A stretch of DNA of 8,648 bases from Planctomycetes bacterium RBG_16_41_13 (GTDB lineage Bacteria > Planctomycetota > Brocadiia > Brocadiales > Brocadiaceae): contig MHYI01000132.1 in NCBI GenBank assembly GCA_001828295.1, positions 1-8,648 of the forward strand. Reading direction: 5' to 3'. The notes below the pieces were generated by a model. It was not told the DNA's origin. It worked only from the letters and a program-made list of their open reading frames with translations, and did not search any database. Position numbers and translations under genes: made by a program. Position 1 is the stretch's first letter, and each line of letters starts with the position of its first letter. This document shows positions 91 to 5,837 of the stretch, piece after piece.

Positions 91-91
91 C

Positions 92-196
92 TATTTTTCA
101 GAAAGCCATTTTATCGCCAAATTTCTAAAATCAGATTTGTTTCGCTATAAAACACCCTATGAAGTTCATTTTGGCGTTCCTTACGAGAAAGAATGA
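92..196 (+). pseudogene. Possible transposase/integrase C-terminal remnant
   Basis: One plus-strand frame is open from the edge of the mobile element to TGA 194-196. It encodes about 34 residues ending in KTPYEVHFGVPYEKE. A 'TPYE-hydrophobic-x-F-G' motif close to the C-terminus is typical of DDE integrase-type transposases of the IS3/IS481 kind, which is the only basis for the call. The rest of the gene is either outside the window or was interrupted by the element at 1-90. No start codon or ribosome-binding site is visible. It could equally be the end of an unrelated gene. Confidence 0.3.
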
Positions 197-3073: not shown

Positions 3074-3144
3074 AGATGTTTTGCCCCTACACCGTGCGGC
3101 AAACATCGTTATTGTTGGAATTTTTCAAAAAGCTAAAGTGTTAC
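3074..3144. mobile_element. Diverged or partial MITE copy C
   Basis: The right 24 bp (3121-3144, ending AGCTAAAGTGTTAC) differ from the terminal repeat of the complete element at a single base. The preceding TTGGAA and the sequence GCCCCTAC are also shared. The interior is different: GATGTTTTGCC and GGCAAACATC form their own imperfect hairpin (3074-3107). The left terminal repeat is not recognisable, so this is either a decayed copy or a different subfamily using the same ends. Confidence 0.65.
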
Positions 3145-3396: not shown

Positions 3397-3495
3397 ATGA
3401 GTAAAGGAAAAGACTCTCGTAAAGAAGAAAAGAAAAAACCTACCAAAACCCTCAAAGAAAAGAGGGCAGATAAAAAGGCTAAAAAGAAGGCTTGA
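3397..3495 (+). CDS. Lys-rich 32-residue microprotein
   Basis: The gene encodes MSKGKDSRKEEKKKP, continuing through TKTLKEKRADKKAKKKA to a TGA at 3493-3495. A strong Shine-Dalgarno AAGGAG ends 7 nt before the ATG, which argues that the gene is translated. The product is extremely basic, about 40% lysine, without hydrophobic segments, and probably disordered. From memory, short proteins of this pattern (MSKGxDSKKE..KKPxKTxKEKRAxKKAKK) recur in diverse bacteria as uncharacterised small proteins. Nucleic-acid or ribosome binding is a guess from charge alone. Its stop overlaps the first in-frame codon of the next, truncated gene (TTGA). It is the only apparently intact protein gene in the decayed middle region. 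Confidence 0.65.
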   Translation: MSKGKDSRKEEKKKPTKTLKEKRADKKAKKKA

Positions 3496-4007
3496 GTTAC
3501 CGCCCTAAAAGCCTCCGTTGTTTTGGCGAATTTTACTTAAATAGAGATTACAATTATAATCTTGATTTTGAGACTATCGGAACTGCAATCCCGATGTTTG
3601 ATTATGTAAAGCCGTATCAACAGATTCCATTTCAGTTCTCGCTTCATATTCAAGCATCACCAAAGAGTAAACTTGAGCACATCAGTTATTTGGCAGAAGG
3701 CAAAGACGATCCACGTCCGGAATTATTAAAGCTATTGAAAAAACACCTTGACACTAAAGGATCGATTGTTGCATACAAAGCATACTTTGAAAAAGATAAC
3801 CTCAACAAAGCATGCGAAGTATTTCCGGCTTACGGGGAGGGGAATCAGAAGATACAAGCCCGAATAGTTGATTTGTTGGATCCTTTCAAAGCCTTCTACT
3901 ACTATAGCTACAAACAAGAGGGAAGCGCATCGATCAAATCTGTCTTGACAATGGGGCACACCTCACTTCCACGTGTGTGTCGCTCATGTTGCAATACTTC
4001 TGACTGA
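3492..4007 (+). pseudogene. Truncated DUF2779-family nuclease-like gene
   Basis: Residues 15-152 match the DUF2779 domain. LDFETIGTAIP (24-34) carries the D25-x-E27 pair of DnaQ/DEDD-type exonuclease folds. It is followed by PYQQIPFQFSLHIQ (41-54), DPRPELL, SIVAYKAYFEK, RIVDLLDPF (D127, D130) and GSASIKSVL. Family members are usually several hundred residues long, with an N-terminal region that is missing here. After SVL the sequence turns into unrelated residues and stops at 4005-4007, where the family continues with further conserved C-terminal motifs. The only start is a TTG overlapping the microprotein stop, with no convincing ribosome-binding site of its own. Both ends are therefore broken, and I call it a pseudogene. 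Function in the family is not established; a nuclease role is inferred from the fold motif. Confidence 0.75.
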
Positions 4008-4166
4008 AAGTTTACTTTCCAGGCTGATGAGGCCGAAGCACTAGCCAACTCCAATTATCGTGAGATGGTATCGCTCAAAACTTATCATCAGATTGATTTA
4101 TCTGTGCAGAAGGGATTATACCTCGATGAGTGGTATCTGATACAGTTCATCATCTACTTAATTTGA
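4008..4166 (+). pseudogene. Unrecognised frame remnant after the DUF2779 stop
   Basis: The same reading frame as the DUF2779 fragment continues past its stop with 52 open codons, including QADEAEALANSNYREM and LKTYHQIDLSVQKGLYLDEW, until TGA 4164-4166. The composition looks like real protein, but I do not recognise the family. It ends 15 bp before the complete mobile element. It may be part of another broken gene or a diverged continuation. Confidence 0.3.
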
Positions 4167-4173
4167 TAAACGC

Positions 4174-4181
4174 CTTTGTCC
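4174..4181. repeat. Target-site duplication, left copy
   Basis: CTTTGTCC is repeated exactly at 4320-4327 on the other side of the element. Removing the element and one copy gives the probable ancestral sequence ...AACGCCTTTGTCCTTGTTTTC.... Confidence 0.88.
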
Positions 4182-4319
4182 GTAACACTTTAGTTTTTTG
4201 AAAAAGTAGGGGCGAAGCATTTGCCCGTTTTGGGTATGAACGCATTTATGACAATTTACAGCAAATGCTTCGCCCCTACATTGCGATTATTGGAATTTTT
4301 CAAAAAACTAAAGTGTTAC
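4182..4319. mobile_element. Complete 138-bp MITE (copy B), IS66-like ends
   Basis: Perfect 24-bp terminal inverted repeats occupy 4182-4205 (GTAACACTTTAG...) and 4296-4319 (...CTAAAGTGTTAC). A second perfect inverted pair of 19 bp, beginning GTAGGGGCGAAGC, lies at 4206-4224 and 4261-4279, so the whole element can fold into a long hairpin. The element is flanked by the exact 8-bp direct repeat CTTTGTCC (4174-4181 and 4320-4327), the signature of transposition. Ends starting GTAA and 8-bp duplications are the pattern of the IS66 family, so an IS66-type transposase elsewhere in the genome is the probable mover. It has no coding capacity. Confidence 0.93.
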
Positions 4320-4327
4320 CTTTGTCC
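4320..4327. repeat. Target-site duplication, right copy
   Basis: CTTTGTCC directly follows the right terminal repeat and is identical to 4174-4181. Confidence 0.88.
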
Positions 4328-4525
4328 TTGTTTTCTTCTGCTCCAGTGCGAACCTTAAAGCATTCCTACTCGCAATATACTAAAGAATATTTTTTTGTAG
4401 ATACAATAGCACCGCTTTTGCTATTCACACCCACATAGAGAGTGGTTTAGCTAAGGAACTAAGTAATATCTGGTTGTCATACCGCCTTCATTTAAAAATA
4501 CAAACATTAGGGTTGGTTATTCTGA
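4328..4525. other. Spacer before the BREX remnant
   Basis: No gene is seen. A small perfect hairpin, AATAGCA/TGCTATT with a 7-nt loop, lies at 4405-4425. The expected brxA promoter should be in this stretch, but no clear -35/-10 pair was found. TAGGGTTGG near 4508-4516 is a poor ribosome-binding site for the following ATG. Confidence 0.35.
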
Positions 4526-4766
4526 ATGGCAGAAAAAAAAATACATGACATGGTTAGCACACGGCGGCGCATTCATTGATGAAACACGCATTTTATTAGA
4601 TATGTTCGATCCTGCGGTAGATATTAATACGTGGGTGGAGCAGATCGTGCGCAAAAATGTTTTAGGAAAGAGATCCCGTTCATGGACCAATGAGATTGTT
4701 AAACGATACTTCCTCGCCCGGTTTGTTACAAAAGAGTCAAACTATAAGGTGGTACGGGAAAGTTAA
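4526..4766 (+). pseudogene. brxA: BrxA (DUF1819) N-terminal fragment, BREX system
   Basis: The frame from 4542 reads YMTWLAHGGAFIDETRILL and later NVLGKRSRSWTNEIVKRYFL. These are the GGA-x-x-x-ETRxLL and N-x-LGKxSRSxxxEIxxRxFLxRF signatures of BrxA, the small first gene of type 1 BREX phage-defence loci. BrxA is normally about 200 residues; only about 80 remain. The natural start is probably ATG 4526-4528 (MAEKK...), but a run of nine A (4533-4541) puts it out of frame by one base. Eight A would restore MAEKKYMTWLAHGG. After VVRES a TAA ends the frame, although the following codons (KLQEA) still look BrxA-like. The rest of the BREX operon is missing and a BrxL tail follows 14 nt later. Confidence 0.8.
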
Positions 4767-4780
4767 AAACTTCAGGAGGC

Positions 4781-5212
4781 TTGAGTAAGTCGATGAAAGA
4801 CTCACTATCTAGGGCTTTTGATTATCTTAAAAGCCATAAAGTCGAGTTTGGAATAGGAAGAGATATAGATACAACAGATTTTCATGTGGAAGGTGTAGAT
4901 TTACTAAATACAAATATTGATTGTCAAATAGGCGTTGCATTCTTTGTTGCAATGTATTCCGCTTTGAAAAAACGACCATTAAGGCCGGCAACATTAGTGC
5001 TCGGAGACTTAAGTATTCAGGGCAATATTAAGCCTTTACCGTCTTTGAATGAGCCACTGCAAGTAGGTATGGATAACGGAGCAAGAAGGGCTTGTATTCC
5101 CATAGAAAACAAACGGCACTTCTTCGATGTGCCGGCGGATGTTGTAGAAAGAGTGGACCCGATATTTTATGGAGAACCTATGGTTGCTGCGCAGAAGGTT
5201 ATGGATGATTAG
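4781..5212 (+). pseudogene. brxL: BrxL C-terminal (Lon-like) domain fragment, BREX system
   Basis: The 143 codons cover the C-terminal Lon-like domain of BrxL. Visible segments are FDYLKSHKVEFGIGRD, DFHVEGVDLL, IGVAFFVAMYSAL, LVLGDLSIQGNIKPLPSL, EPLQVGMDNGARR, IPIENKRHFFDVP and DPIFYGEPMVAA. Intact BrxL is several hundred residues long, with an N-terminal DNA-binding part and an AAA+ ATPase; both are absent here. The nominal TTG start at 4781 is not credible as a native start. Its first residues (LSKSMKDSLS) fit better as the tail of the adjacent BrxA segment, so the deletion junction may lie near 4790-4810. The 3' end is complete. In type 1 BREX loci brxA is first and brxL last, so a single large deletion would produce this arrangement. 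The fragment is probably non-functional, though the domain itself is uninterrupted. Confidence 0.85.
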
Positions 5213-5301
5213 CAGAAAGTATTCTTATCACGGATATAAAGAACGGTGTTTCTTCATGAATTGTCCTTCTAATCACACTTTATACACCGAGGAGCCACTC
5301 A

Positions 5302-5599
5302 ATGCGTAAAAAAGAAGCATTAAAATTGTTGGCGAATAAATGTATTGCAATACTCATTAACAAATATCATGTTAAAAAAGTCTTCCCTATAGGATCGCTT
5401 GTACATGGTATTGTCCATGAAAGGTCTGATATTGATTTGGTTGTTGAAGGGTTGCCTTCAGAGTTTTATATAAAAGCGCTGTCGGAATTGAACGACCTCC
5501 TGCCCCCCAGGTGTCGAAATTAATCTTATTCCATTTGAAGATGCCTTTGAAAGTTTAAAGGAAAAAACAATAAAGGAAGGGGAACTTGTTTACGGATAG
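5302..5599 (+). pseudogene. mntA: MntA-type nucleotidyltransferase antitoxin, frameshifted
   Basis: The start ATG has GAGGAG 7 nt upstream. Residues 1-69 show the minimal nucleotidyltransferase motif: G31-S32 in FPIGSLVHG, and D43-x-D45 in RSDIDLVV. In the MntA/HepT toxin-antitoxin family this enzyme adds AMP to the HEPN toxin and neutralises it. The frame breaks at a run of six C (5503-5508). With five C the protein continues PPGVEINLIPFEDAFES and so on to TAG 5597-5599, giving about 98 residues, the usual family size. As written, it stops at 5521-5523. The tail overlaps the HepT-like frame by 14 nt, as is common in this pair. A homopolymer sequencing error is possible, but the decayed partner favours true loss. 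Confidence 0.8.
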
Positions 5600-5744
5600 G
5601 GAACAACTGAAGAAGGACATTGAAATATAACTCGAAAATCTGCAAAAGGATCGTACAAGAGATGGAGAAGACTGGCATAAACAATTGCAAAGACAGATGG
5701 CAATCCCTTATAAGGGAGTAAGAAGAGAGGTGGCAAATTTCTGA
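5586..5744 (+). pseudogene. hepT: HepT-like HEPN toxin, internally deleted
   Basis: From TTG 5586 the frame reads LFTDREQLKKDIEI, then a stop (TAA 5628-5630 region), LENLQK, and later EDWHKQLQRQMAIPYKGVRREV up to TGA 5742-5744. The first part matches the N-terminal helix of HepT-like HEPN proteins (xLKKDIExNLxxLQKIVxEM). DWHKQLxxQMA..xxGVRxxV is the family's central motif. The residues that should separate them (about 60) and the RNase motif near the C-terminus (RxxxxH) are missing. One base inserted after LQK also allows the alternative reading IVQEMEKTG, so the N-terminal helix partly survives in another frame. The overlap with the MntA frame supports the pairing. It is clearly dead as a ribonuclease. 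Confidence 0.7.
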
Positions 5745-5759
5745 AACCTTTGATTTTAT

Positions 5760-5837
<78 letters not shown>

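What the first reader, a model, noticed from the sequence alone, without database searches (positions are those of the whole stretch)
4526..5212. BREX deletion scar: brxA head next to brxL tail
The sequence shows a BrxA N-terminal half and, 14 nt later, the C-terminal Lon-like domain of BrxL. In type 1 BREX loci these are the first and last genes, with brxB, brxC, pglX and pglZ between them. I infer one large deletion that removed about 10 kb or more and left the outer edges. The residues just before the BrxL domain (GLSKS after KLQEA in a shifted frame) look like BrxA continuing, so the junction may be located to within tens of bases near 4790-4810. Such a clear scar would date and explain the loss of a defence island.
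Basis: partly seen in the sequence, partly recalled or inferred. Interest (0 to 1): 0.8.

Follow-up and report, generated by a model that had tools for sequence, protein, structure and literature searches.

The report
Deletion scar of a BREX locus
In this anammox-type bacterium a complete anti-phage (BREX) gene cluster appears to have been cut down to the start of its first gene joined to the end of its last gene; a close relative still carries the intact cluster at the same place, which shows where about 14,200 bases were lost.

Summary
Window 4527-4745 is the start of brxA, and 4751-5212 is the C-terminal Lon-like end of brxL. A close relative, G037 (locus on a 4,406,153-base contig), carries all six BREX genes at the same locus between the same neighbours. 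Against it the window is collinear to base 4745 and again from 4751. The 14,168 bp between (G037 C1:3120217-3134384) are missing: brxA codons 74-262, brxB, pglX, a TumE-type pair, brxC, pglZ and brxL codons 1-521. The junction has five new bases (4746-4750) and a 3-base overlap, with no long repeat at it. That fits an illegitimate join, not homologous recombination. The brxL piece differs from the intact copy by 18 synonymous and 2 non-synonymous changes, so the loss looks recent on this branch, with caveats. The scar was not seen in 39 related genomes. Misassembly cannot be tested without reads. This is an ordinary loss of a defence locus, unusually well documented.

The parts
4527..4745 (+). 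brxA 5' remnant (intact G037 gene has 262 codons; codons 1-73 have their counterpart here, counting from the ATG at 4525). A run of 9 A where G037 has 8 shifts the frame just after that ATG, so the in-frame remnant reads from 4545 or from further upstream without the normal start.
   Evidence: PF08849 9.6e-6, PADLOC BrxA 5.4e-8, 68/71 residues identical to G037 BrxA; 73 codons counted; A-run compared
4746..4750 (.). deletion junction: five bases that fit neither breakpoint; the 3 bases just before (4743-4745) match both sides
   Evidence: base-by-base comparison with both G037 breakpoints
4751..5212 (+). brxL 3' remnant, codons 522-674 of 674 plus stop (Lon-like C-terminal domain without its first ~28 residues)
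   Evidence: TIGR02653 2.9e-40, 151/153 residues identical to G037 BrxL; first kept codon 522; solved stand-alone domain 8eil matches G037 residues 494-669
3492..4007 (+). DUF2779 fragment upstream, also broken in G037 (left flank of the locus in both)
   Evidence: PF11074 5.3e-38; collinear with G037 at 98.1% over 3559-4745; G037 copy has a stop inside
5302..5745 (+). decayed MntA-type nucleotidyltransferase (5302-5523, frame ends early) followed by a HEPN-like tail; right flank of the locus in both genomes
   Evidence: PF01909 9.8e-5, PADLOC PDC-S09 4e-8; G037 equivalent is a 98-residue ORF; the HEPN label is from recall of the family, no call
5760..5836 (-). intact tRNA-Pro(GGG) to the right of the locus
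   Evidence: ARAGORN, Rfam RF00005 64 bits

Best explanation
The window holds the scar of a deletion that removed 14,168 bp (measured on relative G037) from the inside of a chromosomal type I-like BREX locus, fusing brxA codon 73 to brxL codon 522 out of frame. Shown: both remnants, the intact counterpart at the same place, the breakpoints and the lack of any long repeat at them. Inferred: a double-strand break or replication slip was resealed by an illegitimate, RecA-independent join using three shared bases and adding five. It left no working BREX here: no methyltransferase (pglX), no PglZ and no BrxC ATPase. Probably one event, recent on this branch.
For: G037 carries brxA-brxB-pglX-TA-brxC-pglZ-brxL, the six core proteins near full length against PADLOC models, with the same DUF2779 fragment on the left and the same nucleotidyltransferase gene on the right. 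blastn: window 3559-4745 = G037 at 98.1%, then 4751-5629 = G037 14,168 bp further on at 94.7%. Junction bases. No shared word longer than 6 bases within 25 bases of the two breakpoints, and that word is not at the join. A 533-bp probe across the junction matches G037 only as two separate pieces, 1-66 and 72-533. BrxL piece: 18 synonymous against 2 non-synonymous differences, dN/dS 0.028. Full-length BrxA identical to G037's exists in the protein collection, in a cluster of 33 member sequences (P0125).
Against: No reads were available, so a chimeric contig is not excluded. Ku was found in 0 of 5 related genomes, so classical Ku-dependent end joining is not supported and the joining route is open. 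Divergence on the two sides is unequal: about 2% in the left flank (broken DUF2779 gene, MITE, intergenic DNA, brxA start), but dS about 0.2 in brxL. This points to mosaic ancestry and weakens the dating. More than one deletion step cannot be excluded.
Confidence: 0.93

Rival explanations
1. Assembly artefact: the BREX genes are present in the organism and a chimeric read or strain mixture joined brxA to brxL in this contig.
For: The intact cluster exists in a close relative. Divergence from G037 changes along the contig, from 90.8% to 98.8% in 250-base bins right of the junction, as a strain mixture might give. No whole genome is held for the window.
Against: No direct repeat is found at the junction that an assembler could collapse on. 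The 5 bases at the join fit neither parent. The protein cluster of the short BrxL piece (P0003, 139 aa) is listed with 2 members on 3 contigs, the longest of 8648 bases, which I infer is this one; the other contigs could not be inspected, so this is weak.
Confidence: 0.05
2. The remnant is kept: the brxL 3' piece is expressed as a stand-alone Lon-like domain and that is why this part survived (can be true together with the deletion).
For: dN/dS 0.028 and no stop in 153 codons. An ATG at 4793 lies 13 bases after AGGAGG (read). In Salmonella, over-expression of a brxL 3' remnant with the Lon_C domain changed global transcription, and the authors favour a stand-alone protein (PMC9009780, sections 18 and 19 read).
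Against: The piece lacks residues 494-521 of the domain crystallised alone (8eil matches 494-669). The model of the piece is weak: mean pLDDT 66.4, pTM 0.52, residues 24-43 under 50, though from a shallow alignment of 34 rows. No promoter-like site on the + strand in 4300-5330 (sigma-70 consensus scan only). The low dN/dS is expected anyway if the deletion is young.
Confidence: 0.05
3. Deletion by a mobile element next to the junction (IS- or MITE-mediated adjacent deletion).
For: The locus is rich in elements: a 138-bp MITE-like repeat at 4182-4319 and, in G037, a 2.5 kb IS downstream.
Against: The nearest MITE ends 426 bases left of the junction and sits at the same place in G037. The junction bases and both G037 breakpoints show no copy of the MITE's ends.
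Confidence: 0.03

Closest known systems
Type I BREX (brxA, brxB, brxC, pglX, pglZ, brxL)
   Same: The two remnants are the outer genes brxA and brxL, and G037 has all six core genes at the locus.
   Different: The window keeps only the edges. In G037 the order is brxA-brxB-pglX-TA-brxC-pglZ-brxL, with pglX before brxC and a TumE-type pair between; the order that I recall as standard is brxA-brxB-brxC-pglX-pglZ-brxL (recalled; PMC10117892 lists the six genes as brxABC, pglXZ, brxL, passages seen).
Incomplete BREX loci in natural populations, e.g. Ca. Regnicoccus frigidus (PMC9716671, passages seen)
   Same: Natural population with truncated pglX and brxL; [quoted passage not shown]
   Different: There the presence and integrity of single genes vary; here one junction removed everything between the outer genes, with breakpoints set to the base.
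Salmonella delta-brxL::cat with a brxL 3' remnant (PMC9009780, sections 18-19 read)
   Same: A 3' brxL piece coding for the Lon_C domain remains.
   Different: Engineered, longer (the paper gives 707 nt and 807 nt; here 462) and driven by a strong promoter.

Membership tests
Functional type I BREX locus | six core genes brxA, brxB, brxC, pglX, pglZ, brxL | tested here: not met
   Window has only brxA codons 1-73 and brxL codons 522-674; the 7 other window pieces scanned by Pfam gave no BREX family. The rest of this genome is not held, so BREX elsewhere is not tested.
Functional type I BREX locus (relative G037) | six core genes, full length | tested here: met
   PADLOC and Pfam on 10 ORFs of L048 and L049: BrxA, BrxB, PglX, BrxC, PglZ and BrxL cover their best PADLOC profiles nearly end to end.
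Deletion scar of a gene cluster | two gene pieces joined inside both genes, with the intact order known at the same locus in a relative | tested here: met
Deletion scar of a gene cluster | junction supported by reads | not testable with these tools
   no reads held
Homologous-recombination deletion | direct repeat of tens of bases at the breakpoints | tested here: not met
   longest shared word within 25 bases is 6, not at the join; 3 bases at the join
Ku-dependent end joining | Ku gene in the lineage | tested here: not met
   PF02735 in 0 of 5 genomes (G001, G002, G037, G061, G009); the control search found it in 1 of 14 named genomes, B. subtilis. The window's own genome could not be searched.

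The most novel reading that the evidence does not exclude
The 153-codon brxL remnant was not merely left over but is retained and expressed as a stand-alone Lon-like regulator after the rest of BREX was shed in one step; losing the whole core at once would also avoid harmful half-systems (in Salmonella some single BREX gene deletions could not be recovered; PMC9009780, passages).
Probability: 0.05. Interest if true: 0.6.

Novelty: new member of a known kind. Interest (0 to 1): 0.3.

Why it matters
It is a base-exact record of how an anammox-type bacterium shed a complete anti-phage system, with the intact version still present in a close relative. My search of the paper library for BREX with anammox found no paper. 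It gives a natural pair for asking how fast defence loci turn over and which route joins the ends where Ku was not found. The kind of event itself, decay of a defence locus, is familiar.

Tried and rejected
Scar in sister genomes: a 533-bp junction probe in 39 relatives of G037 (G037 among them) matched 2: G037 itself in two separate pieces, and G015 by a 27-base match that I take as chance. The BrxA remnant as a protein query in 16 genomes gave 2 weak matches, E 0.09 and 0.31, not used. BrxA (PF08849) in the order: 3 of 62 genomes. BrxL (TIGR02653): 61 of 62 with some match but 3 of 62 over the cut-off; the listed weaker matches are mostly confined to about positions 488-672 of the profile, as Lon-type proteins would be, and that list was cut.

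A templated source for the five junction bases: the longest word covering them is 8 bases, found once, on the minus strand of the deleted stretch; I searched both strands of the deleted stretch, 1 kb on either side, and the minus strand of the whole 27 kb. About what chance gives. Serial deletions: not excluded. A second copy of the tRNA-Pro end at the left border of the island: a 20-base tail had no other match with fewer than 6 mismatches in the window or the 27 kb of G037. The BrxA remnant in the protein collection: 2 relatives, P0001 and P0002, both continuing further into BrxA than the window does, so neither is the same scar. BrxA of G037 against solved structures: nothing under E 0.04. 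A structure search of the BrxL piece was not run because the model was weak. Papers: Kuenenia with phage and defense system gave 2 papers, neither about this by title (listing); DruA with DUF4338 and transposase gave 0.

Full report
What the window is. The genes around the finding (rubrerythrin-like, thioredoxin reductase-like, multihaem cytochrome, DUF3786, PEP-utilising enzyme) and the best relatives of the DUF3786 protein (Candidatus Kuenenia hertensis at 81%, an unnamed Planctomycetota MAG at 80%, Brocadia records at 66-70%) place it in a Kuenenia-type anammox bacterium. No whole genome is held for it. The protein collection lists the short BrxL piece on a contig of 8648 bases, the length of the window, so I infer that the window is a whole contig.

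The two remnants. Window 4527-4766 matches the N-terminus of BrxA (PF08849 9.6e-6; PADLOC 5.4e-8; no NCBIfam hit). Window 4781-5212 is the C-terminal Lon-like part of BrxL (TIGR02653 2.9e-40, profile 534-672 of 675; PADLOC 5e-34).

The intact counterpart. BrxA was found in 3 of 62 genomes of the order (G009, G061, G037), and BrxL over its cut-off in 3 of 62 (G061, G037, G004). G037, in both lists, is a 4.4 Mb genome whose locus lies on a contig of 4,406,153 bases. It is the closest relative found: the collinear blocks of the window's left part and of the BREX flanks are 86.2%, 94.3%, 94.7%, 96.6% and 98.1% identical. There the cluster from brxA to brxL spans C1:3119755-3134603 (14.8 kb), with the same broken DUF2779 gene on the left and the same nucleotidyltransferase on the right. 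It codes for BrxA (262 aa), BrxB (192), PglX (1349), two small ORFs (99 and 125 aa, the second a TumE-type toxin, PF20126 7e-23), BrxC (1180), PglZ (852) and BrxL (674). The six core proteins match their best PADLOC models nearly end to end. So the BREX cluster in G037 looks complete, with pglX placed before brxC. The two other Kuenenia-like genomes, G001 and G002, have no BrxA match; their DNA follows the window on the left only up to about 2620-2680 and shows no match to the DUF2779-BREX stretch in the regions fetched.

The breakpoint. Window 3559-4745 aligns with G037 at 98.1% and window 4751-5629 at 94.7%; in G037 the two stretches are separated by 14,168 bp, C1:3120217-3134384. Left side: window and G037 agree through CTAT (4742-4745). 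Right side: they agree from GGTACGGG (4751). The five bases between, AAGGT, fit neither breakpoint, and the TAT at 4743-4745 matches both. Kept are brxA codons 1-73 of 262 and brxL codons 522-674 of 674. Within 25 bases of the two breakpoints the longest shared direct word is six bases and not at the join.

How it arose. Three shared bases plus five added bases point to an illegitimate join (knowledge of end joining, recalled), not homologous recombination. Ku was found in 0 of 5 genomes searched, so the classical bacterial Ku route is not supported, and a Ku-independent end-joining or replication-slip route is the likelier one. One event is the simplest reading; it is not proven. The brxA remnant also carries a run of nine A where G037 has eight, which shifts the frame just after the start codon; this could be later decay or a sequencing slip.

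When. Over 153 codons the brxL remnant differs from intact G037 brxL by 18 synonymous and 2 non-synonymous changes (dS 0.20, dN 0.0056). If the window branch had been free of selection since the split, about 36 non-synonymous changes would be expected; two observed put the unselected time at no more than about 17% of the branch (rough Poisson bound, equal branches assumed). Caveats: 17 of the 20 differences lie in the first 249 bases; the left flank differs by only about 2%, so ancestry is mosaic; the brxA piece, with 2 synonymous and 2 non-synonymous differences in 66 codons, carries no signal either way; and a remnant still under selection would look the same.

Is it real. No read data are held. 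Against misassembly: no repeat at the join, and five bases that fit neither side. The scar was not seen in the 39 relatives searched. In the protein collection the cluster of intact BrxA (262 aa, 100% identical to G037) is listed with 33 member sequences and 1 contig; the cluster of the 139-aa BrxL piece with 2 members and 3 contigs. I could not look at those contigs, so whether any other carries the scar is unknown.

Function. What is left here cannot be a BREX system: the methyltransferase, PglZ, BrxC and the BrxL ATPase are gone from this locus. The brxL piece lacks residues 494-521 of the part that was crystallised alone (8eil, matched over 494-669), and its predicted model is weak (mean pLDDT 66.4, pTM 0.52). 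In Salmonella an over-expressed, longer brxL 3' remnant changed global transcription, and the authors favour a stand-alone Lon_C protein (PMC9009780, sections 18 and 19). This keeps open a small chance that the remnant here does something.

Literature. Search for BREX and anammox: 0 papers. Incomplete BREX loci in natural populations are known, e.g. an Antarctic cyanobacterium (PMC9716671, passages). I saw no paper with a base-exact scar of this kind in the listings of two further searches (25 of 98 papers listed, 7 of 7), which is not proof that none exists. PMC12839542, a 2026 survey of BREX diversity, was looked at by passages only; it held none of the terms gene loss, pseudogen, deletion or planctomycet.

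Verdict. Observation confirmed; interpretation supported, with a corrected breakpoint. New instance of a known kind of event; interest moderate to low.

Noticed in passing
window 5756-5805; L070 2639-2688; L071 14465-14514: In G037 about 68.8 kb lies between a partial and an intact copy of tRNA-Pro, bounded by an identical 50-bp direct repeat of the tRNA 3' end; the window lacks this stretch and has the tRNA directly beside the BREX remnant. It looks like an integrated element; no integrase among the 12 ORFs near its ends that I scanned.
   Followed up: partly
L048 2813-5224 (G037), site at window 5625-5629; window 91-153: G037 carries an 803-aa protein that fuses a DruA domain (PF14236) to a Tn5-type transposase, in an insertion of about 2.5 kb flanked by ATATA; the site is empty in the window, which has a piece of the element's end at 91-153.
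   Followed up: partly
window 4182-4319, also 1-90 and 3103-3144: 138-bp MITE-like element with 24-bp perfect terminal inverted repeats; matches reported (both strands, overlapping hits included, at most 40 candidate places scored per genome) 76 in G037, 116 in G002, 64 in G006, 34 in G001, 1 in G010.
   Followed up: partly
L049 1042-1706 (G037): A TumE-type toxin gene and a small partner ORF sit inside the BREX cluster, between pglX and brxC, and are missing from the window with it.
   Followed up: no
window 3559-5629: Identity to G037 is patchy: about 98% in the left flank, 93% then 99% in the two bins that cover brxL, 91% in the bin of the nucleotidyltransferase gene; suggests recombination between strains.
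   Followed up: partly
L032 (G009), L033 (G033): Other BrxL genes of the order look shortened: G009 matches only profile 2-467 in a 496-aa frame; G033 is split over two frames near a contig end.
   Followed up: no
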